From positions 1 to 48,036 of the forward strand of contig JBBHKE010000086.1 in NCBI GenBank assembly GCA_037447655.1: a DNA stretch of 48,036 nucleotides. Reading direction: 5' to 3'. The stretch comes from Zygnema cylindricum (lineage: Eukaryota > Streptophyta > Zygnematophyceae > Zygnematales > Zygnemataceae). A program made the translations under genes and the position numbers. Shown here one piece after another: positions 10,490-48,036 of this stretch. Each line of letters starts with the position of its first letter. Position 1 is the stretch's first letter. The notes under the pieces are model-generated. The model saw nothing but the letters and a program-made list of their open reading frames with translations. It was not told the origin of the DNA and did no database searches.

Positions 10490-12473
10490 TCATATTTCCT
10501 CCCAAACCGAATCCCTCGAAGGAGCATTCGATAAATTCACATCCTCTATATTCTCATTTTTACCCTCCATTCTCATCACCTCTGGAGGAGTCTCCATAAC
10601 ATTCTCTCTCGTAACATTCACTCTCCCTCCCCCTCCCACCAGTCCTCGTCCTTCCTTTCCAGCGTACCCTTCCTTCCCTTCCTTTCCCTCTCCCCCTCGC
10701 TGTCCCCCTCTCCTCCTCCTCCTCCTCTTCCTCTCCCTCCCTCTCTTCCTCTCCCTCTCTCGGGATCGACAAAACCGTCCTCCATGTTTGGCCTCCACTT
10801 ATCGAGCATCCTTCCCCCTCCCTCTCCCTCTCCCTCTCCCTCCTCTCCCTCCCTCTCCACCCCCGTTCCCGTTTCCGTAATCTCCTTTTTCGTAAAATTT
10901 TCCGTCGAAAATATCGTAAAACTCAGCGGTACGAACTTCTTGGGCCAAAGCACAACAGGAACAAAAAAACCACGAAAAAAAATCGATCGTCGCGGAATGT
11001 CCACAAAACCATTTTTTTTTCGGTAAATTGTAAACTTGTCTCATCTTCATTCGGAAAAACCCTCCGTAAAGAACTCCTAAAACCGATAAACCGATCCCTA
11101 TCCCTCCGATTATACGCCTCGTTTTATCGTCGTTTATATTCACCGCGGCCAAAACAAATATTAAAAACGGAGCAAAAAGAAAAACGGAAAACGTAATCAT
11201 GTGAACAAATTTATTCCCCAATCCCAAACGTTCGTGGTTTATCCCAAAAATACAAATACAACATAAAGTCGAAAGGAGCCCGACTCGAAAATCGTCGAAA
11301 AAACCCCAAATTAAACCGCCTTTCCATTTTCGCTTTTTCTACCGGAGTCCTTGTTAGAAAAACCGCCCCGTTTTCCGTCGATCAACAACCTTCGGCTTTT
11401 TCCGGCCTCCATCATCGCCAAATCTTTCGTCTCATTATAATCTCCGTCGAAATCTTTTCCTAAAGGAGACAAAAAGTTATAAATTCCCGCGAAAGCGGCG
11501 AATCCTATGGCTCCGGTGAGAGTTACGGCAACTCCTATGGCCGGTCTCTCACTCCTCGTAAAACCCCAATTCAAACCCGATAAACAATATTGAAAAAGAC
11601 AATTTAAATTCAAAGAAATCACGACAATCATCATATGTTTCCATTCGTCCGGTTTCCTCGTCCCTCCCTTATTAAAAGTCATCCTCATAACCAAAATATT
11701 CATGCGGTCTCCATCGATAAAGACGAATTAAGTACCGGATTCTCGCCGGTTGTACCACAACACACATAAAAAAAAAAAGCCCGTTTAAAATTTGATTATT
11801 TACTTCGAACCAAGTATCTCTCCCCTTTTTCGATTTAATTTGGGCGTTCAACATTCCGGTCATCACCAAAAAAAGGAGAGCTCCGGAAATCGCGACGAGG
11901 AGGATCCACAGAAAAAGACAAAAGTTTAACGGATTTTTGATCCATATGAGGCCATCCCGTTTCAAATCCGACCACAAAACGTCGCCGAATAACGGAATGC
12001 GAACGCCTTCCGTTAGGAATCGCGGTTTCGTCACGACTTCCTTCGACCTTTCCTCTTTAAAAGACGCCAATTTTTGGAGAGTCGAGGAGGGAGACCGCAA
12101 AAGTTCCAAACCGGAAATCGAAGTTAAATGTCGCAATTGCGATTTTTGAATCGAATCCGTCGACGATTTTTCAGAACTCGGAAAATTTTGAGAATCGCCT
12201 TCGTTTTCTTTTTCGTTTTCGTTCTCGTTTTCTTTATCGTTATTGGTATTATTGATGTTGTTATTTAAGGTGGTGGATAAAGGGGTGGTATAAGTACTAT
12301 TACTGTTATTTGAGGTGGTGGAAAGAGGGGTATAATTATTATTATTATTATTAGTGTTGATAGGAGTCGAAAGAACTGGGGGTACTCGGAAAATCCACAC
12401 TATTTCCGGTAGATTGAGGAGAAGAAGGAGACATTTCACTCAATTGAGTATGGTCGTGAAATTGCGATTTTTC

Positions 12474-24115: not shown

Positions 24116-24307
24116 CCCACTTGTCGTGCATGTGTCCGATAACGTGAAGATGCATGCAATATCATCAGCTTTGCTCCACTTAAACCAAATGATGAAAATA
24201 CATTGTAAATGAAATAGGACATAAAAGTAAAAATGGATAAATACAACAACACGCAAGGTGGAAGAAAAAGAAAGGTCAACGACTTAGCTGGTTATGGTTA
24301 GGTCGGT
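24116..24307 (-). other. Region expected to hold the gypsy 3' LTR; none identified
   Basis: Directly downstream of the polypurine tract an LTR beginning TG would be expected. Instead the minus strand reads TAAACCGACCTAACC and then AT-rich sequence with no visible match to the 5' region at 31.4-32.7 kb, before running into the CCCTCT tract. The 3' LTR appears to be lost or replaced. Confidence 0.4.
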
Positions 24308-24326
24308 TTATTCCCCCCCCAGCTCT
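24308..24326 (-). other. Polypurine tract after the integrase-PHD frame
   Basis: Read on the minus strand this is AAGAGCTGGGGGGGGAATA, starting immediately after the TAA stop (24,327-24,329) that ends the PHD reading frame. Its position and purine content fit the primer site for plus-strand DNA synthesis in LTR retrotransposons. Confidence 0.6.
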
Positions 24327-24503
24327 TTAGCCGACAGAGGAGCTAGCCAACATGATCGGAAGCTCGTGACATCCGTGGCAAAACCAGTGACCATCCGGAA
24401 CCGCCAACAATGGTGGCACCAAACACTCCATGTGAAACCCTTGATTGCAGTGATCACAAAGTAACATGGTAGTTTCCCCGTCTGATCAATGACAAAAGGC
24501 ACA
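24327..24503 (-). pseudogene. PHD finger at the integrase C-terminus
   Basis: The minus-strand frame reads VCAFC, a TGA stop (24,486-24,488), then SDGETTMLLCDHC, NQGFHMEC and VPDGHWFCHGC. The spacing is C-x2-C, C-x2-C, x4-H, H-x2-C, W-x-C-x2-C, an exact C4HC3 PHD finger including the conserved Trp two residues before the seventh Cys. PHD fingers bind histone H3 tails, so the likely role is guiding integration to a chromatin state (inference). The finger is in the same frame as the integrase, about 50 codons beyond its last open segment, with TAG and TGA stops between. It replaces the chromodomain that chromovirus integrases carry at this position. Ring-type or FYVE folds fit less well because of the W-x-C-x2-C ending. 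Confidence 0.85.
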
Positions 24504-24647: not shown

Positions 24648-25730
24648 CTAGATAATCCGTAGGATGTGTGCAGAAACATCCGTGTCCAAAGCGTTTAAAG
24701 ATTGCCTGCGAAGATAAACATAGTCTCCCTCCCGATAGTGCGAAGATAAACATAGTCTCCCTCCCGATAGGGCTTCTGTTGCGGCCTGTAACTGATGCTT
24801 CGAGTGGTGGCAAACCGAATTGTGTCCCAATGTTGGGCAATCAAACCGAATTGTGTCCCGATGTTGGGCAATCTGCAGGTTGTCAAAATTCATAGGCATT
24901 TCACAGGCAAAATGCAAAGCACGACGAGTAAGTTCTTCCAACAAAATGGTGTCAGACATCAGTAGGAGTGGAAAGCTTGCAGCTTTTTGAATATTGCGAC
25001 CGAGCAACGGTTGTCGCCCAAATAAAACGTAATAAGGACTGAAATTAGCCAGACTAGCTTGTACTGATATGCGATATCCCATAGTAATGTAGCCGAGGGA
25101 CTCGTCCCAAACTGAAATGTGTTTCTCTAAGCAATGCTTACGCAAGGCACACTTAAATGTTTGGACTGCCCGTTCAGCTAGGCCATCTGCCTGAGGGTGA
25201 TCGCGACTAGTACGACGATGATCGATGAGAACCTCATTAAGCATATCTTGAAATTCTCCCCGAAATTTCGTACCTTGATCCGTAAGGACCTAGGATGGGG
25301 CACCGTATCTCATAAGGACATGTTCATTAAAGGCGGCGGTAGTGAACTTTGTTGTCTTGTGAGGCAGAGCTACAACTTCCACCCACTTAATGAAATTCTC
25401 GATCATAATCATGATGTATTGTTTTCCTCTACGTGAGATAGGAAAAGGTCCGGCCAAATCGGCCAACCATCGGTAGAGTAAACCCCTAATAGGTAGAGGT
25501 TGGATCCCAGTCTGCCAATTAGAGAAAGAAGTTCGGAGATGGTCGCAGGTGGCACACTTGTGTAGAATAGCAGCGATATCAACTTGCATTTGTGACCACC
25601 AATACCGTGCTTCAACTAGGCTTAACGTCCGCTTAGTACCGTAGTGACCAAGCTCGGTGTGAATTTGCTCAATTAGGGAAAGTCGCTCGGTAGGACGAGG
25701 GACGTGTCTATGGCTTCCGTCTGCCAGCAA
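24648..25730 (-). pseudogene. Ty3/gypsy integrase
   Basis: The N-terminal zinc-binding HHCC motif is visible as HTELGH and CATCDH. The catalytic core follows with the first Asp in DLAGPFP, the second in VLTDQGTKF and the Glu in LAERAVQTFK. A C-terminal region (FSPYYVLFGRQPL) leads toward the PHD finger. Two open segments (25,290-25,730 and 24,648-25,244) share one frame, separated by an in-frame stop just before VLTDQG. Two short tandem duplications (32 bp at 24,707-24,770 and 31 bp at 24,811-24,872) disrupt the C-terminal part. Integrase would insert the element cDNA into host chromatin. Confidence 0.9.
24707..24872. repeat. Two short tandem duplications inside the integrase
   Basis: A 32-bp unit (TGCGAAGATAAACATAG through CCCGATAG) is repeated exactly at 24,707-24,738 and 24,739-24,770. 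A 31-bp unit (CAAACCGAATTGTGTCCC through GGGCAAT) is repeated with one mismatch at 24,811-24,841 and 24,842-24,872. Neither length is a multiple of three, so each shifts the frame. Confidence 0.85.
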
Positions 25731-25900: not shown

Positions 25901-26590
25901 TTAAGTAAGATAAGAACCCAATGACATGGCAGTAACCTTCTCATCGTCAAAATCATGTCGAACTCCGTTATTCGTTGTTCGGGCCAAAGGATTTCGGGAA
26001 ATCCCGTCCGCATTTAGATTAAGCAGACCGGGTCGGTAAATGGTTTCAACGTCATATTCTTGTAAAATTAAAGCCCATCGGGCTAGATTCTCGGAAAGTT
26101 TATCATTAGTCATCAGCCAATGCAAGGGTTGATGGTCATTTAGGAGTGTGAAAGATTTTCCGTACAAATAATGACGGAAGTGAGCGACTCCACAAACCGC
26201 GGCTAGACACTCTCCTTTGTAGCAACTATAATTTGATTCAGCCCGGTTATTGCTTCTACTCGCGTAAGCAACTACGTATTCCTCTCCGCTCAACTCTCTT
26301 TGTCTCAAGATAACAACAATTCCGGGATTTCCAAAATCTGTTTAGAGACAAAAAGGGAGTTTGTGATTGGGGGGAAGGAGATTCGGAGCACTTGATAAGG
26401 CGGTTTTTAACATTTGAAATGCGGAAATGTGATCGGGACCTCGTATGAAGGCAACTTCCTTCTTGAGGAGGTCATTTAACGGAGATGCGATGGTATTGAA
26501 AATAGATACGAACCTACGATAATAAGTAGCAAGTCCAAGAAAGGCTTGCAGACTCGTGAGGTCTGTAGGAGCCGGCAATACAGTGATCAA
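25901..26590 (-). pseudogene. Ty3/gypsy RNase H
   Basis: The upstream piece (26,342-26,590) shows the connection region LQAFLGLATYYRRFVSIF typical of gypsy polyproteins. The RNase H part (25,901-26,308) has VAYASRSNNRAESNYS, the catalytic Glu in KGECLAAVCG, and NDHQPLHWLM, followed by RWALILQEYDVETIYRPG and NADGISRNP. Both pieces share a frame, separated by a stop. RNase H degrades the RNA strand during reverse transcription. Between it and the integrase lies a poorly conserved spacer (25,731-25,900). Confidence 0.88.
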
Positions 26591-26699
26591 TTCAATTCTC
26601 TACCTTTGCTTCGAGAGGAGTGATCCCCTTTGCCGAGATAAAATGGTCGAGGTAAGGCACTCCCTCGGATCCAAAGGTGCATTTCGCTAGATGACATTT

Positions 26700-27483
26700 T
26701 AATCCGACCTTTTTTAATTCAGTCAATACCCATTCGATGTGAGCAGCGTGCTATTTGATAGAAGCAGAGGCAATGATGAGGTCATCGATGAAACACCTAG
26801 CAAACTTACAACCCCCGAGGACTGAGTCCATGACTTTTTGAAAAATCGCTGGAGCGTTTTTCAGTCTGAATGGCATTACAACCCATTCCCATCGGTCGTC
26901 ACTAGCCCAAAAGGAAGTTTTATGCCTGTCATTTTCCTCTATCTCAGTTTGATTGAATCCTTGACGGAGGTCAAGGATACTGAAGCACTTCCCTCCGCCA
27001 ACGTGATGAAATATTTCTTCGGCAAGAGGAATGAGATGACGACCTTGAACCATTTTTGCATTTAGTTCACGATAATCATCACACATTCTACACTCAGTAA
27101 AATTACCCTTGGAATCCTTTTTGCGAGGCATGACAGTGGTAGTTGCAAATGTGGAGTCTGACCGATACATTAGGCCAGCTTCCTCTAGTTCAGCACATCG
27201 TTTGTCTACCATATCCCATTCAATTTCTGACGGACGATGTTTCGGTTTAAATATCGGGCGGTCATCTTCAAGATCTATCGACATCTTATAAGCGGTGAGA
27301 TGACCCAAATCGTTCATACAAAAAGCAAAGGCATCGACATTTTGTAAAACGTATGACATTTAGTAATTCTTGTTCGGCCTTTGTTAGATTGGTGCCGAAT
27401 TTCCATTTAGGCGCATCGGGATTTTCGGTTGTCATAGCTTCCATGGCTTGTGCAAAGGCCAACTGCTCATCTGGGATAAGCAC
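26700..27483 (-). pseudogene. Ty3/gypsy reverse transcriptase
   Basis: The N-terminal piece (27,286-27,483) contains PKWKFGTNLTKAEQELL; after a frame change near 27,360 the RT core continues (26,751-27,359). Visible motifs include RMCDDYRELN, FSILDLRQGFNQ (catalytic Asp), MPFRLKNAPAIFQKVMD and CFIDDL. The last corresponds to the YxDD box with Phe in place of Tyr. A stop follows at 26,751, and the conserved thumb continues downstream in frame (ELKKVGLKCHLAKCTF). RT copies the element RNA into DNA. Confidence 0.9.
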
Positions 27484-27500
27484 TTGACCTAACTCATAAG

Positions 27501-27764
27501 CTACGGGTGTCTATTTACGACAATTAACCGAATGATTCCACCTGCTTGTTGGAAAAGCAACACTCCAATGAGGAATGGGTGGAATATGCATGGAACTTGT
27601 AGACTGGACAGCCGTGTATGCGGGAATAGACCAGGACATGTGGCTAGGATTGAAGAAATCGTAGATAGAGATTTCCAGAACTGGTGGAATTGGAGAAGGA
27701 AAGAGGAAAAATTGAAATGTGGTCTCTTTGAGAGTGGGACGGAAAGATTCACTTAATGATGCAT
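27501..27764 (-). other. Linker between the DNMT stop and the RT
   Basis: One minus frame reads SMHIPPIPHWSVAFPT and then, after a stop, PVAYELGQVLIPDEQ, continuous with the RT N-terminus. This suggests the downstream polyprotein begins here. No domain is recognised. Confidence 0.4.
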
Positions 27765-27774
27765 CCCCCCCCCC
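27765..27774 (-). other. G10 run overlapping the DNMT stop codon
   Basis: On the minus strand the DNMT frame ends ACTTAG followed by nine more G and then ATGCATC. The purine run directly after a stop resembles the tract after the PHD frame. It could be a central polypurine tract, a slippery site, or a remnant of an element end. Confidence 0.45.
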
Positions 27775-28803
27775 TAAGTTGGTTGAGAGGGATGTATCTG
27801 AGAGTGGCGACCAGCTGCAAACCTAAGACCTAAAACAAAGGACAAAGGCTGAGGGTCCATGACACGACCTAATAAAGTGCATCTTTGACGTTCTGTAAGA
27901 CCAGGAGCGGCTGTAATGCCAGGGATGTAATGCATGAGGTGTTCTCGCTCTGTAGAGATAGGCTCTTTGAGCTGACCGGTATGAATGTTTCAAAGCATGC
28001 CAGGATCGTCATTAGAGAATGCGTGTGAATATGGGTAAGAGACTAAGGTAGGAAGAACCTTGAGAGGTTGACCCGGGACATTGATATTAAAATTGGGGGG
28101 ATAGTATTTTTGAATGCAATGCTGTACCTTGTGGAAAGGAAGAAGTGCAGCCTGAATGTCTGTAGGAGGAGGACGAACTGACAAGTTGGCCTCACGGAGT
28201 CGACCAATATCGATGAGGTGCGTCCATTTGGAGCGAACTTGGTGTGCTAGTGAACCATGGCGAGCAACGTTAATAATAAGAGGTGGACCAATTAATTGTT
28301 CGATCCATTGATAATTAGTCAAGACCGTAGGTCTTAGATCATTATAGGTTGCGACATTTTCCAAGATATACCCCATAGGATGATCTAAAGTTTGTCAAAA
28401 ATGCAGGATGCGAACCAATTCAAAAAATAATTTGGTGCGAGGATCGGCTAATCCGAGACCTTTCCCGGCCCGAGACATTCCCTGGCACTCCCAACCGCCA
28501 AAAACAAGATCGATTGGACCAATCTCTAGTAAGTGATTGTTGCCCACAATCGGAATGTCTTGTGAGAGGGCAGTATGCATATGGTCGCATGCAGATTTTG
28601 ATAACAAATGCGGGTATTGGGAATACAACAGATTACAATGATGTAATTATGCTTTCCGTGCTAACAGATCAATCTAAACCGAATATTGAAATCGGATAAA
28701 TAATCCATTCCGCAAACATGCAAGGAGGGAAGTGCCTATTCCAGTGAAGAGGTCCAAAATCACCAGTCCATTTGGATGAGGTTTCAATTAGACCGGATTC
28801 CAT
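27774..28803 (-). pseudogene. C5-cytosine DNA methyltransferase domain within the gypsy element
   Basis: From motif I to the terminal stop (27,774-27,776) all motifs lie in one minus-strand frame. Motif I is VILDLFTGIGTSL (SAM binding, from 28,763). Motif IV is FGGWECQGMSRAGKGLGL, with the catalytic Cys codon at 28,485-28,487. Motif VI is YILENVATYND (28,353-28,361 for ENV). Motif VIII is a QVRSKW segment. The C-terminal region has EPISTEREHLMHYIPG and LLGRVMDP-type sequence (motifs IX-X). A plausible ATG (28,801-28,803) precedes motif I but needs a one-base shift. Length, about 340 codons, equals a minimal DNMT. The enzyme would methylate cytosine C5. In-frame stops at 28,674, 28,647, 28,395 and about 27,987 show decay. 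The motif order excludes N6/N4 methylases. It sits between protease and RT. Confidence 0.88.
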
Positions 28804-28819
28804 TTATTCGGAAGAAACC

Positions 28820-29250
28820 TAGAAGAGTTTGTAGGGACTGGGATTGGAGGAGAGACCAGAGAAAGTGGAATTGACAGGGTTTGGTTATAAATTTGGTCAA
28901 ATTCCCTCGTATTTATAAGAAAACATGGGTCACTAAAAATTTCGAATTTCTTTTGCTGACAATGAATGAAATATTTCGTCCCCCACCAAATTCCCTAAAA
29001 TTGTAGGAATGGATGTGGCCGAATTTGCCATAGCAGGCATGGGCTTCCTAGCGGAAATTAGGAGAATGCAAATTTTGCGTTTTGAGAAGTTAGTGGGCCT
29101 ATAAGAAAATGTCTGATCATGCATGTCAACTCCACCCCTAGACGAAATATAACGTCTTGTCCAACTAGGCATTCACAGTCACTACATTCAACTCCACCCC
29201 TAGACGAAATATAACGTCTTTTCCAACTAGGCATTCATAGTCACTACATT
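28820..29250 (-). other. Protease-DNMT spacer with a 62-bp tandem duplication
   Basis: The end of the protease (CAACTCCACCCCTAGACG through CACTACATT) is duplicated in tandem at about 29,128-29,189 and 29,190-29,250. Beyond it a frame reads NFSKRKICILLISARKP and NLVGDEIFHSLSAKEI, with no recognised domain, before the DNMT start. Confidence 0.55.
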
Positions 29251-29698
29251 TAGTGACCAGAGCGTGAACTGAGATCTCAGCAAAATCTGTGGCCGTTCCG
29301 TTCTGGAACCTGAAAACGAGCGGTTCCTTAGTGATTCCTAGGACTGGCTCGGTTGTCCACGCTGATGTTAACAATCGAGTCGAAGTGGATTGAAGCTTGT
29401 CCGGAGTTGGACCAAGCTTGAGTGCAAAGCTAGAGCCCAATATCATCGGCTTTGCACCCGTATCCATGAGAGGCAGGGAAGGGGCTTTACAATTGATCAA
29501 CAATGCACCCTTCCCGTTATCCAAAAAACTGATTTGAGGATCGAGGGAATTTTGCTCCTCTATGGAAATAGGCTGAATAGCAGCAAGATTTATGTGCACC
29601 TGAAGTGCTTGTAACGCGGCAGCTGCAGCTGAGCTATCGGGGGTAAAGGAGATAGAGGAGATTTTGGTGAGTCGGAAATCATAGTGGATAGCATGCAC
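29165..29698 (-). pseudogene. Retroviral-type aspartic protease
   Basis: The active-site triad appears as LPLMDTGAKPMIL, followed by a flap-like region and DYECLVGKDVIFRLG near the C-terminus, a pattern typical of pepsin-like proteases in Ty3/gypsy polyproteins. It would cleave the Gag-Pol precursor. A Gag-protease linker rich in Ala/Ser/Pro precedes it. The second copy (32,741-33,205) has DTGAKPVIL at the same position but is truncated by the assembly gap. Confidence 0.85.
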
Positions 29699-31346
29699 AA
29701 GCGTTCCTTCACGCGGTGTGCCTCATGTATAGTTCGATCCACCATGTTCAGAGCTCCAGCCGCGATGGTTGAAGCGGTTTCCGGTAAGGGAGGAGTAGAT
29801 TCTTTAGTGAATGACAAAAGAATGCGTGTGGTAGGAGTTTTACCGTCATGGCTGTGATCGGTCGAACCTTTGTCGAACGTAGCCTCTCGTTGTTGGATGG
29901 TGGAATCTCCCAAGATTTGACCTGCCAACGTAGGCATGTGTACAACAGTGCGAGCCATGCCTGTAAATTGTGGCTTCATTTGAGTCATGAAGGCTGCAAA
30001 TTGTTCTTTTATCATAGCCGCCATTTTCTCTTGCATTTCCAAACGCTCTCTCTCTCTCTTCGAGATACCTTAGGTAGAGTGGTGTCCTTCTCCGGTTCTC
30101 TAACCGGTTGAACCGGTTTTGCAGATTGAGAGGGAATGCCACCACTCTTAATTTGGTTCTGATAGGAAAATTTTGGGTTCTTTTTATGACAACGTTGGAC
30201 ATAATGTCCGCTTTGCTTGTAATGTGTACAGGTAGCAGTTTTGTCTGGACACATTCGGGCATTATGCCCTGTCTTCCCACTTCGAAAAAACAATCGGTTT
30301 CCAAGAGCAACAGGTGAGGTTCCCATAGCCAGAACTTTAGGAAGCCGGTTATTAGGACGAGGATTGGTCTATGGTGGAACAATCGGTTCTTTCGGGACCG
30401 CTTTAGGACGGTCATGGGCATCCCACCATCAATTTGCATTTCGTATTCCACGGCATGCTGGGCGGCTTGGTTGAAAGTGAACTTCAAGCCGTAGGTTTGA
30501 GTCACGTGATTCTGGATAAATTTCTTAGACTGACTCGGAAACTGTCCTACAAATTTCTGGACAGCTTCAGCATCCGACATTAAGTCAGGCAATGCTTCAC
30601 AAAGAGCTTCCATACGAGCACGCATGGCAGAGGCGGTCTCTCCTCACTTCCGTTCAAAGTTCTTTATTTCGCTTGCAACAATTAAAACATGACAGAGAGC
30701 GGATCCAATATAGGGATTGTCATCGTTGGTCGTGCTCGGATTCGAGCACTTGCGGTTATAGCGAACTGCTGCGGTATTTCCGCAACTTCTGCTGTAATAA
30801 CATCACCGTTGAGATCAAGGACTTCCGGAAAAGCTGATTGGTAGGGAATTTCTGGTTGTCCTATAACAGCTAGACTCCCAACGAAAGCTGGAGAAAACTC
30901 TGTCATCGCAAGTACGGAATCATACTTGCGCAAGTAAAGAGTAAGGGCTGAACCGCGAAGTAACGGCCTAAAAGAGAGAAAGCGACCCGTAGGTCAAACC
31001 GATCTTGGTACTGAAATGCAAGATCACGCATTTTGGTATCGAGTAACATTCGGAAATGGGATAAGGTCATGGTGTACTTCATTCCTAAAAAATGGAAATG
31101 AAGCCAACCCCCTCACTCGGATGTGGAAGCCATTTCCAATAATGGAGTGATTAGGGCTAATAATGAATTTGTAATTTGTGGAAACCAAAAAGAAAATGAA
31201 TTGGAATCTGACCAGTCAAGTGAATCGTGGTCAAATTTTTCCTCAAAAAATGTGGAAGAGATTGATGATAAGTAAGATACTGAGGTGAGAGAAGATCGAA
31301 CAGAAAGGGAAATTTGACCCGAGATATTCAGGAAAAGATGCTCCAA
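29590..31346 (-). pseudogene. Gag with zinc knuckles (copy 1)
   Basis: Broken into several frames, but each piece aligns with the longer Gag at 33,611-34,774: LLEMASTSE start, QPEIPYQSAFPEV, ALPDLMSDAEAVQKFVGQF, then zinc knuckles. The knuckles here have lost cysteines (FRSGKTGHNARMC and CTHYKQSGHYVQRC). A linker (29,590-30,042) with EQFAAFMTQMKPQFTGMART leads to the protease. Gag packages element RNA in the cytoplasmic particle. Confidence 0.8.
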
Positions 31347-32686
31347 AAAATTCTAGGTAAATCTAATGGTCCTGATTCTGTGGGCCTAAACGAGGCTGAC
31401 GATCGGGTGGTTCCGAAAGGATAATCAAGATTATCCCAATCGGTGGGCATAAAAATGATAAAACCAAATGACAACTGGATAGCAAAATCGATCTATACGA
31501 GGTGCTTCAAATGCCAGGCCACACCCCTCACTCGTCCAATCAGCCAATCAATCTCTAACAGGGCCTCGATGGCCACCCCCTCACTCGTCCAATCAGCCAA
31601 TCAATCTCTAACAGGGCCTCAATGGCCAGATCTATTAGGAAGCCGTATTACCAAAACCTTTTACCCTGTAAACAAGGGGACAAGGCCGAAGGGCCAGATC
31701 TATAAAGGCAAATAACTTATTATCCAAGCACTCCCAAGTGCAGATCTAAAGCGGCACAATCCACAAAGGAGCTAACCAATGCCTCCAACGGCAAGATCTA
31801 TGGAAGAAATCCCACACCGGGAAAAGCAAACTTAGCCAATGCCACTCAGGGCCAGATAGCAAGCATGGAAAGCTGGAAAAATGCAATGCTCAATACGAGT
31901 GGATTAACACGAATCCACTCCAGCCACGATCCCTCTATACGATCAATCGACTACCTTAGCACGCGCAGGCACCCACAAGGCATTGTAATACTTACATAAC
32001 ACTGTTAACAATCTGGTGATTGCCAAGGGTGAACTGCGATTATTGGCTACAACCGAAGTTTTGCAGAGCTCCCAAGAACGGATCCGCTCCACTAACTCCA
32101 CTCTTTAGTGAGGTATGTCACAATGTGAGCAAACAATGCTCCGTGTATGCAAAGAGAGCGAAAGAAATAAAAATCAAATACTAAAGTTAGTGTAGTATAT
32201 TATGGGCCAAAAATTAGCCGATGAGATTATAACGTCAACCAACAAGCAAATGGGAATTAAAAAATGTAAAGCTAGTTATAGATTTTTGTAGAAATGTATC
32301 TATATATATATTTTTATTTTTTTAATATAAGAAAAACTGAAATTTAAATATAACAAACAAGAGAGAAAGCGAAAAATATGATAATTTTCAAGTGCAGAGT
32401 TATCTTATCGAGAATAATCTGAATTTATACTTAAACTAAACAAATCAAAACATAAACAACCGAGAAAGACAAACAACAACTGAAAATGACAATATGCCCG
32501 ACACTTATGAGGTTTGAGATAGTCAAACTCAAAAGATGCGCATAAGCCAAATAGATATGAATAAATAATCACAAAAAATAAAAACAACAAATCAATAATC
32601 CCAACATGCAACTTCCACATTAAATAAAGCTCAGCCACAGCTGGGAAAAGAAGTTTGTGTCGTGAGAACGCGGTCGAAATCCACTC
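31347..32686 (-). other. 5' LTR/leader-type region of gypsy copy 1
   Basis: About 1.3 kb noncoding, largely homologous to 34,800-36,177 upstream of the second Gag (shared blocks include CGGATCCGCTCCACTAACTCC, CACCCTTGGCAATCAC and the end GCGGTCGAAATCCACTC). LTR limits and a tRNA primer site could not be fixed. A 51-bp tandem duplication (CCCTCACTCGTCCAATCAGCC unit) occurs at about 31,525-31,626 and is single-copy in the other element. Confidence 0.5.
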
Positions 32687-32696
32687 NNNNNNNNNN
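32687..32696. other. Assembly gap (10 N)
   Basis: Ten N lie at the junction between the 5' region of gypsy copy 1 and the truncated protease of copy 2. The true distance and missing sequence are unknown. Confidence 0.99.
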
Positions 32697-38555: not shown

Positions 38556-39479
38556 TTAGGACGACTCACTAACCATTATGTTTGAGTCTGACTCGCTTCC
38601 ATCAAGCTTCAGTCTGATTTCCATGGGAGTTACAGATCCTTTTACATCTTTCATTTCAAATTTTTCTAGCATATTACTTATTGCTTCTTTTTTAGTTAAC
38701 ATAATTAGTTTTCTGTTTCTGTCTCTCTCTACCTGTATTCCCAAGATATACTTAGATTCACCAAGGTCCTTCATCTCGAACCTCGACCTTAAAGCTGTTT
38801 TAATTCGATTTATTTCATCCATATGCTTCCTTATTAAAAGAAAGTCGTCCACATATACAGCAATATAAAGAATCGTATCCTCCCCTTTAGTATATACACT
38901 GAATGATCTGAACTAATCCTTTGAAATCCTAGTCTAGTAAGAAATTCATCTTGTTTTAAGTTCCAATGTCTAGGGGCTTGTTTCAGCCCATACAAAGATT
39001 TTATTAGTTTACAAACTAAGTTTTCTTTCCCTTTCTCTTCATACATCTGTGGTTGTTTCATGTAAATGGTTTCCTCTAATTCTCCATATAGGAAAGTTGT
39101 CTTAACATCCATCTAATGGACTTCCATGTTTTCTATAGTGGCCAAACTTAGTAAGATTCTGACAGTGGGAAATCTGACAACCGGAGAAAAGGTTTCCTCA
39201 AAATCAATACCTTCGTTCTAATTGTAACCTTTGGCCACAAGTCTGGCCTTGTACCTTTTGATGGTGTTGTCCCAGTTGAGTTTCACTTTGAACACCCATT
39301 TGCTGCCGATGGCTTTTTTGCCCGGAGGAAGATCCACTAGCTCCCACGTCTGCGCCTCCATGATAGACTTCATTTCGTCATTTACCGCCTCTATTTAGTG
39401 ATTTCTCTCCGGTGATGAGAAGGCCTCCTGAATTGTTAACAGTTCCGTTGTAGCTGCAGAGAAAGCAAAATGTGAGCTT
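38556..39479 (-). pseudogene. Copia reverse transcriptase
   Basis: The N-terminal part (39,113-39,390) reads MKSIMEAQTWELVDLPPGKK-type sequence followed by SKWVFKVKLN. Then come DVKTTFLYGELEETIYMKQP, KSLYGLKQAPRHW, the catalytic YVDDFLLI (near 38,850) and FEMKDLGESKYILGIQVERD. Two stops and at least one frame change interrupt it. It is clearly Ty1/copia RT rather than gypsy. Confidence 0.88.
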
Positions 39480-39481
39480 GC

Positions 39482-40545
39482 TTACAGACGGCTGCTGGTT
39501 CTTCTTCCCCCCAGAAATTTTGACGCTGAAATCATCGGCAACCTGCGATTTGTTGTCCTGTTATGAGCTGATGTAGATGCCAAAACTGGATCTGGATTCG
39601 CTAGTTCCACATGTGTAAGAAATTGTGTAGATGCTGGTGCCGAATCAGGTTCTGCAAGAGGTGCTGCATCTGGTAGAGGAACATGTGGAGATGTAGGTGT
39701 AGTCGGGGACTGTGACTGAAAATAAGCAGGTTGAGTACGCTGAAAGATTACATACTCTTGTACCTTTTGTGTTTGATCACTCTCATTGTTTTTGAACATA
39801 TCAACCGAATCTTTTTTATCCTTCAGCTGTATATATCTACATACATTAACTTTGTTTTTCTCTAAGACATATACCTTATAACCCTTTGCACTGTCATCAT
39901 ATCCCATAAAAATCCCTGGTAAGCCTTTAGCTTTTATTTTCCATCTAGTCTTCGATGTGTCTAAGACATAAGATTTGCTGCCAAATACTCTAAAGTGACT
40001 AACATCCGGTTTCATGCCTGTCCAAATTTCATAAAGTGTAGTCTTATCCGATCTAGATGCAATTTTTTTTTTAATATAGATCGCACAAATGAGTGATTCA
40101 GCCCATAATTTCAAATCTAAACCTTTGATCTAGCATGCTAACAGGTTCGAAATTTTTTAAATGTCTGATACACCATTACGTTAGTGTGTACGGGCTGTCG
40201 GTTAAATGACCTTCCTGGGAAAACTCTTGAACTCCTTTGGGTATATTCACCTCCGTTGTCCGATCTTAGTGCCAGGATCGGAATCCATGCAACTTTTAGC
40301 CAGCCGTAGTGCTTGAAGTGTGTAAACACTTCACTCTTGTGCAGCATGAAGTAGACTCTTGTGAACCTCGAGTAGTCATCAGTGAATGTAACCATATAGT
40401 GGACACCTCCAGCAGATGGAACTTATGATGGGTCAAGAACATCCGAGTGGATAAGTTGTAGAACTTTGTCCGATCTGTGGTCAGATTGCTGTGGAAAAGA
40501 TTATGTGTGGATCTTTCCAAGTGAGCATCTATCAAACGTCACCTT
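39482..40545 (-). pseudogene. Copia integrase
   Basis: The core shows HSDV (first Asp), MVTFTDDYSRFTRVYF, and RSDNGGEYT (second Asp). The C-terminal part reads WAESLICAIYIKKK, FRVFGSKSYVLDTSK and GIFMGYDDSAKGYKVYV, followed by a variable Ser/Pro-rich linker. Stops occur near 40,137 and in the first 100 codons. Confidence 0.85.
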
Positions 40546-44927: not shown

Positions 44928-45346
44928 AATCCTCATGTAGTGAGCAAGGTGCTTGTGTGGTCCACAGTAACAAAAGTGAGCTTCGTACTTTTCTTTTGCC
45001 AGCCTCGACCAGCTATATTCGCTGTCACGTACCACACGGGCAACGTATCTACGCATTTTTCACCGACTCTGTTACACTTCTGCAAACCCTAATCGCCGGA
45101 AGCTGGCCCCGAGAGGCACTAAAATTTATGGCGAATTAGCCCTGTCTATTTGGTGTAAGACTCAGGTTTTTTTATCAAAAGTTTCCGATAAGGGTTTGAT
45201 AGTATAAATCTTTGCTTAAATTATATCTGCTTTTGCTGCGATCTTTTGATTAGTGTAAGGCTTTTTTTGGTTAGTTTCTTTCAACTGACTGGCTGGGACC
45301 AGCCAGATCCTGTGCTGGTCCCTCTCTTACCTCAAAGTTTGGCAAG
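44928..45346 (+). promoter_or_regulatory. Promoter and 5' leader of the PP2A-A gene
   Basis: A telo-box-like AAACCCTAA lies at 45,084-45,092, an element frequent in plant promoters of growth and translation genes. A TATAAAT at 45,203-45,209 is a reasonable TATA box, placing transcription start near 45,235 and a leader of about 110 nt. A hAT MITE ends only about 430 bp upstream of the ATG, so the promoter is compact or partly transposon-derived. Confidence 0.45.
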
Positions 45347-48036
45347 ATGTCTTCAACTATGGCAGTAACCGATGAGCCAATTTATCCTATTTCCATATTA
45401 ATTGACGAGCTTAAGAATGACGATATCCAGTTGCGTCTGAACTCTATCAAGCGGCTTAGCACAATAGCCCGGGCCTTAGGAGAGGAAAGGACACGGAAAG
45501 AGCTGATTCCGTTTCTGAATGAAAATAATGATGATGATGACGAGGTCTTACTGGCAATGGCTGAAGAGCTTGGAAGTTTTATTTCTTATGTTGGCGGTAT
45601 AGATTATGCACATGTCCTTCTTCCTCCGTTGGAGACCCTATGTACTGTAGAAGAAACTGTAGTGCGTGATAAAGCTGTAGAGTCCCTTGGACAGATTGGC
45701 AGTCAAATGAAGGAGCGAGACATTGTCGAGTTTTTCATTCCACTTGTCAAGGTAGGTAAACGAGAAAAACTTTTGTGAAATTGGATTACCTGTCCCATAG
45801 TATGCATTGTTTGTTGGAACTTTAGAATTACGATGCGCTAATCATCTGACTAGTAAGTGTGGGGAGATCAACTGGTTATTAAAGGAATTTTGTTAACTGA
45901 GAAAACTTTCAATGTGAATTTAGGCTGCGTACTTCGATTATGGGTAGTTATTTTCATCTAAAAATAAGAAACAAGTTTTTGTGTTTTAGAATTAGGTAAT
46001 TTTTATGTCGTTAGGTTACTGTTGTCTGTAACGTTAAGCTTGCCATAGGTCTCCCTTCATGACGATACAGGCTGCAGAATCCTTTTTTTTTCCCGGGTCG
46101 AAAGCTTTTTGGACAACAGTGAGAATTCCGTGGATTCTTAGGAAATGGTTCATTCTATACATGTAATGGAGTATTTTGACATATCTTGTTGCTGTATCAA
46201 CAATAGCTGTGGATAATTTTATGTAATAAATTCTTGCACCCTAGAAGTACATGCATATCTTTCGCTGTTTATTAAAACCACAGGTTCGTCTTTTAAAGTC
46301 AAGCATCTCTGTTCGCTATTGGTTTAATCTCCCTGCATTAGAATATCTTTCTATGCATATACATTTTTTTCCATCTTCTGCTTCTTTGGTAACTGGCTTC
46401 TATCAGTACTTTAAATAGAAGTTAATGCAGATTTCTTTTTGTACAGCGTCTTGGTGCAGGAGAATGGTTCACAGCTCGGGTCTCTGCTTGTGGGCTGTTT
46501 CACATTGCATATCCACATGCAACTGAGCTGCTGCGTGCAGACTTGAGGGCAAAATTTCTAGAGTTGTGCCAGGATGATATGCCTATGGTGAGACGTTCAG
46601 CTGCACTGAATTTGGGAAAGTTCGCTGCAACAATAGAGCCTCAATTTTTGAAAACCGAAGTGATGCAATTTTTCAAGAGCCTAACACAAGACGGTGAGCA
46701 TGTTTCTCCTGAATGAGGTCTCATTTTTGGCATGGATGCTGCTTGGCATGATTAAATTGCATAATTTGGGAATGATGTCATTTCACCGATAAGTGGGAAA
46801 TCATTAGGTCATTGAATGTTTCTCTTTGTCTTTTTTCCTGCATGTTTGGGAGCCACTTTTGGGAACCCTACTTTTTTGTGCTTTATTGGGTTATTCAAGC
46901 TGCTTGGCTACAAAGAAATTTTCATGTATTCTCTTGAATGATGATGTTTGCTTTATTAAACAAGGAACTAAGACATGTTCATGGAATCTGTCCGTACAAT
47001 GCTGTCTTCTTCCACAGATCAAGACTCTGTTCGTCTGCTGGCGGTGGAAGATTGTGCTGCAGTAGGAAAGCTGCTCGACAAGCAAGACTGTATAACAAAT
47101 GTTCTACCTGTTATCATCAATTTCTCACAGGTGCTTTTGTTACCTGGCCTCTGTTTGCCATTTTGTCTGATTCTGGCAAGAGGATTGAATTTTGCGTCAA
47201 AGTTTGAATTTTGCGCCTAAAATTACCGTCACAAAGACTTGGCATTCATTTGGGCAGATTCAAGATCTTAGTAACTTGAAAACATTGTTCTTCCTTTTCC
47301 TGAGGCATAGTAAAATGTAGCTCCTCTTTAAGTTTCATTAAAGAGGCGATCATTTTGGTCTTTTTCTGCAGGATAAATCATGGCGAGTTCGATACATGGT
47401 GGCCAACCAGCTTTATGAGTTGTGTGAAGCTGTGGGCCAAGACCATGCTAGGTTAACATTCCTTATTCCTTGTTCTTCATGGGAGCCCTTGCCAGAATAA
47501 AATTGCCAGTTTTTTGTTTGAGCGACTTTTGTAATGGCATTTTTTTTTCAGAAGTATATCAAACTATGTAATCTGTAATTGAAAGATTTCCAGCATGGGA
47601 CTATAACCACGTTCGGTTGATTCCAGCTTTCACATTCAGAAGCTGAAGAACAGCCATGTGTGCTGCTGAAGATGTCAAACTGAACCCTTGTTGTGGTTTT
47701 CCCAAGTCAAGTCTTCACTGTTTCACTTTTGTGCAATTTTGTCTGTTCTTGCACCCTAGCTGCTGGAACCGTTTGAGGTTGAAGGTACAGTTCAAGTTAG
47801 ATTTCTACCTAGTCATTACTATGTCATTGGTATTTCTAGAAAATACCTTAAACGTGGAGTTCTGTCACCTGTGACCAACGTTGACCAGTGTTTCCTCTCT
47901 AGTTTGGTACTTGGATTTGCATTTTATGCGTTTTTGTCATCTCTCATTAGCTTGTCCTGTGATGGAACTGCCAGGACGGAACTGGTACCTGCGTATGTCC
48001 GCCTTCTTAAAGACAATGAGGCTGAAGTGCGGATTG
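45347..48036 (+). CDS. PP2AA: PP2A 65 kDa regulatory (scaffold) subunit A, 5' half
   Basis: Encodes the HEAT-repeat scaffold that joins the catalytic C subunit to a variable B subunit in the PP2A Ser/Thr phosphatase. Exons: 45,347-45,751, 46,447-46,693, 47,018-47,130, 47,372-47,451 and 47,975 to the window edge; all introns are GT-AG and the phases join correctly. The product starts [20 protein letters not shown] and includes [74 protein letters not shown] and [20 protein letters not shown], matching plant PP2A-A closely. About 302 residues of the usual 587 are present; the gene runs off the window. The ATG is the family start. No stops or frame breaks, so it is presumably functional. Confidence 0.96.

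What the first reader, a model, noticed from the sequence alone, without database searches (positions are those of the whole stretch)
27774..28803. Cytosine DNA methyltransferase embedded in a Ty3/gypsy retrotransposon
Between protease and reverse transcriptase, on the same strand, one frame encodes motif I (DLFTGIGTSL), motif IV with the catalytic Cys (GGWECQGMS), motif VI (ENV), a motif VIII-like QVRSKW and a C-terminal region resembling motifs IX-X. Established knowledge: capture of C5 methyltransferases by retrotransposons has been described in charophytes and dinoflagellates, with the suggestion that such elements methylate their own cDNA. Inference: this element belongs to such a lineage or is an independent capture, placed inside the polyprotein rather than at its end.
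Basis: partly seen in the sequence, partly recalled or inferred. Interest (0 to 1): 0.93.

Follow-up and report, generated by a model that had tools for sequence, protein, structure and literature searches.

The report
DNA methyltransferase inside a jumping gene
The stretch is a decayed copy of a retrotransposon that carries its own DNA-methylating enzyme (related to animal DNMT3) between its protease and reverse transcriptase; such elements were already known from a green alga, and here the enzyme turns out to be a long-standing, selected part of a large family rather than a chance insertion.

Summary
Confirmed. On the minus strand at 27768-28769 lies a DNMT3-type cytosine methyltransferase domain, between protease and reverse transcriptase of a Ty3/gypsy element that ends in a PHD finger. 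This copy is dead (five stops in the domain). It is not a secondary insertion: of 108 related RT matches in this genome 50 have a listed DNMT directly upstream, and 16 of 20 fetched from the other 58 have one too. A relative is open over 2395 codons; the domain shows purifying selection. Three families (40-59% identical in the domain) share A-coding-B-A-B repeats, mostly 4-bp target duplications and a palindrome GACAGCTGTC at the inner repeat junction. This matches KnitGypsy-Dnmt3 of Klebsormidium nitens (2018), so the kind is known. Added here: the PHD finger; two fixed positions of the DNMT in Pol that split DNMT and RT trees alike; relatives in the liverwort Marchantia; signs that integration cuts a palindrome inside the repeat. 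Methylation of the element's own DNA copy is the likeliest role but is not shown; the Klebsormidium domain was inactive in yeast (inconclusive test).

The parts
24121..24312 (-). repeat B1 (start of the 3' repeat block), next to the poly-G tract; the A2 and B2 repeats are missing, pyrimidine-rich low-complexity DNA follows
   Evidence: blastn to the C46 copy, 24121-24291 at 90%; the stretch to 24312 is taken from the flanking sequence
24313..24320 (-). run of eight G on the element's strand, polypurine tract (start of plus-strand synthesis, inferred)
   Evidence: sequence; G run at the same place before B1 in C1344, C1407, C449, C895, C1374
24330..24545 (-). C-terminal PHD finger (one stop)
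   Evidence: tblastn 68% to the C1344 PHD; PF00628 at 24369-24503, 44.6 bits
24858..25775 (-). integrase: H2C2 zinc finger and DDE core
   Evidence: tblastn 83%; PF17921 2.3e-14, rve weak at 0.043
26027..26476 (-). RNase H
   Evidence: tblastn 79%; PF17917 4.9e-28
26477..27206 (-). reverse transcriptase
   Evidence: tblastn 82% and 73% in two pieces; PF00078 3.2e-14
27207..27738 (-). linker between DNMT and RT
   Evidence: tblastn 51% and 78% in two pieces
27768..28769 (-). DNMT3-type C5 cytosine DNA methyltransferase domain, motifs I, IV (Glu-Cys in place of Pro-Cys), VI, VIII, IX-X; 5 stops
   Evidence: PF00145 9.5e-10; 334 of 335 residues aligned at 73%
28770..29100 (-). spacer between protease and DNMT
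   Evidence: tblastn 52%
29198..29551 (-). retroviral-type aspartyl protease
   Evidence: tblastn 73% to the C1344 protease region; PF13650 weak, E 0.032
30084..30341 (-). gag zinc-knuckle region
   Evidence: tblastn 65%
30390..31235 (-). gag
   Evidence: tblastn 48-76% in pieces
32342..32686 (-). 3' part of repeat A1 (5' repeat), cut by the assembly gap 32687-32696
   Evidence: blastn 87-88% to the C46 A repeats at 32393-32686; lower end by offset from C46
32771..37240 (-). second, partial copy: repeat A, gag, protease; ends near the gap

Best explanation
A dead copy of a Ty3/gypsy LTR-retrotransposon lineage, most likely of streptophyte green plants, in which a DNMT3-type cytosine methyltransferase is a fixed domain of Pol, here between protease and RT, with a PHD finger after the integrase. 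In relatives with an open frame the enzyme would be made as part of one Gag-Pol chain and so enter the particle with RT (inferred). The likeliest role is to methylate the element's own double-stranded DNA copy before or at integration, so that it arrives already marked like host heterochromatin, while the PHD finger reads a histone tail at the target (inferred, by analogy with chromodomain gypsy elements, recalled). Integration appears to use a DNA form opened at an internal palindrome of the long repeat rather than at the repeat's ends: synthesis starts at the poly-G tract before B, giving a repeat B-GC-A; the ends A and B are joined in a circle; the DDE integrase cuts GACA/GCTGTC and inserts with a 4-bp duplication, leaving A-coding-B-A-B (inferred from anatomy). 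My estimates: identity and anatomy 0.95; circle and palindrome integration 0.6; self-methylation of the DNA copy 0.45.
Against: No activity is shown for any gypsy-borne DNMT in what I read: the K. nitens domain gave no methylation in yeast, called inconclusive because DNMT3B failed too. Family A has Glu for Pro before the catalytic Cys. CG-biased decay of the repeats fits host methylation just as well as self-methylation. No tRNA primer site was recognised after A1. Of 8 copies looked at for layout, 4 show it complete; C1374 has an extra B block and no clear target duplication, C1407 lacks A1, C544 and C2577 do not show it. C449's duplication is imperfect. Four of 20 fetched places had no DNMT match.
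Confidence: 0.5

Rival explanations
1. The enzyme acts on the host rather than on the element's cDNA: as part of Pol or released by the protease it methylates chromatin at the insertion site or competes with host silencing, the PHD finger bringing it to histone tails.
For: A PHD reader and a DNMT3 writer in one polyprotein recall the ADD-plus-catalytic arrangement of animal DNMT3 (recalled); the PHD is found by profile in 30 of 62 database hits, on both sides of the split by DNMT position, and at least 71 of 150 scored PHD places of this genome lie within 12 kb downstream of a listed family A RT or DNMT.
Against: Gag-Pol products sit in cytoplasmic particles until integration (general knowledge); two Closterium proteins (P0017, P0018) and P0046 run past the integrase without a recognised PHD.
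Confidence: 0.2
2. The domain no longer works as a DNA methylase; it binds nucleic acid or methylates RNA, or serves a structural role in the particle.
For: Glu instead of Pro before the catalytic Cys in family A, Closterium and many others; no activity of the K. nitens domain in yeast.
Against: The catalytic Cys, the ENV Glu and two Arg of motif VIII are invariant in 23 aligned sequences; dN well below dS in the informative pairs; Pro and Glu forms occur on both sides of the tree, which suggests a tolerated switch.
Confidence: 0.2
3. An independent capture of a host DNMT by this element, unrelated to the Klebsormidium elements.
For: De Mendoza et al. report captures into different superfamilies.
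Against: DNMT and RT trees agree in the split by DNMT position and in the groups A, B+C, Klebsormidium and Closterium; shared repeat layout. The trees are unrooted, so two captures of similar DNMT3s by sister gypsy lineages cannot be excluded for the two positions.
Confidence: 0.07
4. A secondary insertion of a methyltransferase gene into one gypsy copy, or an assembly chimera.
For: The window has a 10-N gap at 32687-32696 and a second partial copy beside it.
Against: The gap lies 3.9 kb from the DNMT; many other RT copies have the domain at the same place; single open frames run through protease, DNMT and RT at C1344, C1407 and C449.
Confidence: 0.01

Closest known systems
KnitGypsy-Dnmt3 of Klebsormidium nitens (de Mendoza et al. 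2018, PMC5890265)
   Same: LTR gypsy element, DNMT3-type domain in the Pol ORF, repeats laid out as in DIRS elements, low dN/dS (Ka/Ks under 0.2 there); K. nitens proteins P0005 and P0054 fall on the same side of the DNMT tree, P0054 also in the RT tree.
   Different: 37% identity in the domain (P0005); Glu-Cys instead of Pro-Cys in motif IV; PHD finger (the word PHD has no occurrence in that paper's main text; the K. nitens protein held ends before that region, so its absence there is not shown); far more copies than the few stated for K. nitens.
SymbioDIRS-Dnmt3 of Symbiodinium (same paper)
   Same: DNMT3-type domain in Pol; A-coding-B-A-B repeats.
   Different: DIRS element with a tyrosine recombinase; this lineage has a DDE integrase and 4-bp target duplications.
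Animal DNMT3A/DNMT3B
   Same: Best sequence and fold match of the catalytic domain.
   Different: About 20-25% identity; no ADD or PWWP next to it; lies inside Gag-Pol.
Plant DRM and CMT
   Same: C5 methyltransferases of the plant lineage; a CMT-like exon is in this genome (L015).
   Different: DRM2 scores far lower (1.1e-7 against 8.6e-21); motifs here are in the unrearranged order.
Chromoviruses (gypsy elements with a C-terminal chromodomain; recalled)
   Same: A histone-reading type of domain after the integrase.
   Different: A PHD finger instead of a chromodomain.

Membership tests
KnitGypsy-Dnmt3-like LTR retrotransposons | gypsy Pol (RT, RNase H, DDE integrase) | tested here: met
KnitGypsy-Dnmt3-like LTR retrotransposons | DNMT3-type domain inside the Pol ORF | tested here: met
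   window; relatives with open frames:
KnitGypsy-Dnmt3-like LTR retrotransposons | A-coding-B-A-B repeats | tested here: met
   complete in 4 of 8 relatives looked at (C1344, C449, C46, C895); C1374 with an extra B block, C1407 without A1, C544 and C2577 not; in the window itself only part of A1 and B1 remain
KnitGypsy-Dnmt3-like LTR retrotransposons | purifying selection on the DNMT | tested here: met
   on 14 rows chosen for being open; near-identical pairs are uninformative
KnitGypsy-Dnmt3-like LTR retrotransposons | common descent with the K. nitens element | tested here: met
   P0054 on the same side as the own rows in the RT tree and, with P0005, in the DNMT tree; unrooted, some inner branches weak
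DNMT3 | catalytic motifs in unrearranged order, nearest to DNMT3 in sequence and fold | tested here: met
DNMT3 | de novo CG methylation activity | not testable with these tools
   K. nitens domain negative but inconclusive in yeast
DRM (rearranged plant DNMT3) | permuted motif order | tested here: not met
   motif I precedes motif IV
DIRS retrotransposons | tyrosine recombinase, no target duplication | tested here: not met
   DDE integrase; exact 4-bp duplications in 3 of the 5 copies whose two ends were read

The most novel reading that the evidence does not exclude
An old gypsy lineage of green plants, from streptophyte algae to a liverwort, that carries its own epigenetic kit (a DNMT3 writer and a PHD reader in one Gag-Pol), with the writer fixed in one of two Pol positions since a single deep split, and that integrates a circularised, self-methylated DNA copy by cutting a conserved palindrome inside its long repeat with a DDE integrase, a life cycle that I have not seen described for LTR retrotransposons.
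Probability: 0.3. Interest if true: 0.85.

Novelty: new member of a known kind. Interest (0 to 1): 0.6.

Why it matters
Plants silence transposons by cytosine methylation, so a transposon that brings and keeps its own de novo methyltransferase is a puzzle. A genome with many copies, open frames and three families offers a better subject than K. nitens, which has fewer copies. The relatives in Marchantia, a land plant with good genetics, would make the question testable in a model plant; [quoted passage not shown] The repeat layout with palindrome and 4-bp duplication turns an odd remark in the 2018 figure legend into a testable integration mechanism. PHD counts in algal genomes may also be inflated by such elements.

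Tried and rejected
Secondary insertion and assembly chimera: rejected by the other copies. Independent capture: not supported. A search of 5.8 billion proteins with the decayed domain itself found nothing at E 0.001 (429 candidates); the same search with relatives that have an open frame found 21 and 43 proteins. IMG/VR viral contigs: one weak relative (31%, query residues 32-168, L077), with no match there to the other domains of the C1344 element, so a viral origin finds no support. A tRNA primer site beginning TGG directly after A1 was looked for by eye in 5 copies and not found. The first structure model was poor (pLDDT 56.9) and was not used. The copy number of families B and C, a ribosomal RNA search for the host (RF01960) and a RuBisCO search (PF00016) did not complete by the genome tool. 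One search was a useless alignment; a failed script. Host name: not established. A CMT-like exon and a PP2A-A gene point to streptophytes; the size (352.8 Mb here, 359.8 Mb for Zygnema cf. cylindricum SAG 698-1a in PMC9915684, passages) makes that alga a guess only. Statements that something was not found in print rest on searches in an open-access library that lacks most subscription journals.

Full report
What is there. The minus strand of the window from about 32.7 kb down to 24.1 kb is a decayed Ty3/gypsy element. Aligned to the protein parts of a relative with an open frame it reads gag (31235-30390), zinc knuckle (30341-30084), protease (29551-29198), DNMT (28769-27768), linker, RT (27206-26477), RNase H (26476-26027), integrase (25775-24858) and a PHD finger (24545-24330). 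Pfam confirms DNA_methylase (9.5e-10), RVT_1, RNase H and integrase zinc finger and the PHD finger at 24369-24503; the protease and integrase-core profile hits in the window are weak (0.032 and 0.043), and the two other stretches given there (gag, 29849-30643, and 24651-25289) had none. The DNMT has five stops. A 10-N gap at 32687-32696 cuts the 5' repeat; beyond it lies a second copy with only repeat, gag and protease.

Is the methyltransferase part of the element? DNA search with the window's domain scored 40 places of 355 first-look candidates, at 88-100% identity, the window's own copy included; the Pfam profile scored 123 places of 782 candidates; the protein of the copy at C1344 gave 121 rows (120 scored of 1864 candidates), at 67-100% identity. 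The tool says such counts are lower bounds. RT and RNase H of the same copy gave 108 rows (107 scored of 4363 candidates). In 50 of these 108 rows a DNMT listed or 68 lies within 1.5 kb upstream on the same strand (two of the rows are pieces of one copy). Such a list can only give positives, so for the 58 others I fetched the expected place for the first 20 by score: 16 of 20 match the DNMT there, one of them by 17 residues only (L062), and four do not (L061, L063, L064, L070), though the first of these has a DNMT listed 1.9 kb off. 38 rows were not judged. The fair estimate is the 16 of 20.

A relative with an open frame. At C1344 a single frame of 2395 codons holds zinc knuckle and protease (both weak), DNMT, RT, RNase H, integrase and, at its end, a PHD finger (5.5e-12). 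The DNMT domains read from this genome fall into three families: A (the window's; motif IV with Glu-Cys), B and C (Pro-Cys), with A-B 42%, A-C 40% and B-C 59% identity. The B copies C544 and C1374 and the C copy C895 also end in a PHD-like cysteine pattern (by eye).

Selection. Nei-Gojobori counts on 14 domains: C1344 against C449 (both A) pN 0.141, pS 0.80, that is saturated silent sites; family B pairs 0.12-0.26; two C pairs 0.13 and 0.14. Against this: L026-L038 1.25 (dS 0.008), L004-L006 0.32 (dS 0.061), C1344-C1407 0.32 (dS 0.004) carry few changes; L016/L017 and L027/L028 are identical. The rows were chosen for being open, which favours constraint.

Relatives elsewhere. Protein searches with the DNMT part of an A and a B frame gave 21 and 43 hits, 62 different proteins, among them Klebsormidium nitens (2), Closterium (5) and Marchantia polymorpha (4, one of them Mp_4g09160 on a contig of 27 Mb). 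Domain order was read with profiles. Where it can be told, the DNMT lies either directly after the protease or before RT (own A, B, C, Klebsormidium, Closterium; Marchantia as PR-DNMT, with no RT in the protein held) or between RNase H and integrase (proteins without a named organism, one of them from EukProt). In a DNMT tree of 65 rows (58 of 62 hits, four dropped as too short, and 7 own rows) the two positions are the two sides of one branch, SH-aLRT 100, three rows without a position not counted (28 rows, 100/99). An RT-RNase H tree of 33 rows (27 of 62 hits, those with both domains found, and 6 own rows) splits the same way, 100/98, and shows the groups A, B+C, Klebsormidium and Closterium again. 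The two trees differ in places: P0046 joins Closterium by RT but not by DNMT. DNMT and RT thus largely share one history. The trees are unrooted, and several inner branches are weak. A PHD finger is found by profile in 30 of 62 hits, on both sides of the split (P0014 and P0022 on the pre-RT side); P0062 shows the pattern by eye; P0017 and P0018 (Closterium) and P0046 run past the integrase without one.

Repeats and integration. C1344 has A1 (931 bp), coding region, B1 (242), GC, A2, B2; A1 and A2 are identical, B1 and B2 99.6%. Of 8 copies looked at, C1344, C449 (A), C46 (A, nearest to the window's copy) and C895 (C) show this layout; C1374 (B) has an extra B block 3.7 kb after B1; C1407 has B1, a shortened A2 and B2 but no A1; C544 (B) showed no such repeats in 14.9 kb, and C2577 (A) has no A2 and B2 in the stretch held. 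The ends are TGT and ACA. The flanks repeat 4 bp exactly in C1344 (TTGG), C895 (AAGT) and C46 (ACAG), three letters of four in C449, not in C1374 (read by eye). A run of G lies directly before B1. The B1-A2 junction reads GACAGCTGTC, present exactly once in each of 5 of 6 copies searched and changed by one base in the sixth, C46. Inference: plus-strand synthesis starts at the G run, so the repeat made by RT is B-GC-A; A joined straight to B (exactly or with a few extra bases) looks like joined cDNA ends; the integrase cuts the palindrome after CA on both strands, which gives the usual recessed CA ends. That retroviral integrases can cut such palindromes is recalled, not looked up. The primer site is not explained.

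Methylation history. Between paired repeats of four copies (8 pairs) transitions hit 49 of 435 CG, 23 of 337 CHG and 47 of 1387 CHH cytosines (Fisher CG against CHH 3.7e-9, CHG against CHH 0.008). This order is that of plant DNA methylation and suggests that inserted copies are methylated; it does not say by which enzyme.

Host. One of the PF00145 hits (L015) is an exon nearest to the chain group 4fsx/4ft2 (listed as DNA (cytosine-5)-methyltransferase 1; I recall it as the maize chromomethylase ZMET2) at about 3e-29, the next DNMT1 chains at 1e-12, and the window holds a PP2A scaffold gene. A streptophyte is likely; the species is not known.

Comparison. De Mendoza et al. 2018 (PMC5890265; abstract, sections 9-11 and passages seen) describe KnitGypsy-Dnmt3 in K. 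nitens with the same superfamily, the DNMT3 domain in Pol and a DIRS-like repeat structure, given for SymbioDIRS as A-coding region-B-A-B; they argue for methylation of cDNA and report that the K. nitens domain gave no methylation in yeast, inconclusively. A 2025 survey (PMC12344493, passages) repeats that some DNMT3 members sit in retrotransposons of streptophytes and dinoflagellates. I found no mention of a PHD finger in such elements, nor of the Marchantia members, in the listings of searches and the passages read, in this limited library. So the window's element is a new member of a known kind; the PHD finger, the two positions with like-split trees, the land-plant members and the palindrome are additions.

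Noticed in passing
window 45278-45778 (+): N-terminal part of a PP2A 65-kDa scaffold subunit gene, a host gene.
   Followed up: partly
window 10802-11338 (-), with neighbouring frames up to 12439: PLAC8-domain gene, in pieces.
   Followed up: partly
window 38556-40129 (-): Fragment of a Ty1/copia element (SH3_retrovirus domain at 39485-40129; RT by eye).
   Followed up: no
window 12.6-13.9 kb and 22.6-24.1 kb: Long purine- or pyrimidine-rich low-complexity tracts; the second begins where the element's B1 ends, and in C2577 a pyrimidine-rich tract also follows B1.
   Followed up: no
window 29100-29250, 31507-31620, 24700-24770: Short tandem duplications of some 30-60 bp inside the decayed copy, by eye.
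   Followed up: no
L015 (C514:125180-128428): CMT-like (chromomethylase) exon, so the host seems to have its own plant-type methyltransferase.
   Followed up: partly
DNMT motif IV in own families and P0001-P0062: The residue before the catalytic Cys is Glu in family A, Closterium and many unnamed members, Pro in B, C, Klebsormidium and a Marchantia member: switches on both sides of the tree (Marchantia P0024 read; the pattern was not found in 12 or more of 62 proteins).
   Followed up: partly
G000, PF00628 places: At least 71 of 150 scored PHD fingers lie within 12 kb downstream of a listed family A RT or DNMT. PMC9915684 (passages) reports 9-fold or more PHD counts in Zygnema cf. cylindricum SAG 698-1a; such elements might explain it.
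   Followed up: partly
L077 (IMG/VR contig 3300049846_000848): A lone distant DNMT fragment (31%) on a contig classed as viral, with no match to the C1344 element's other domains.
   Followed up: partly
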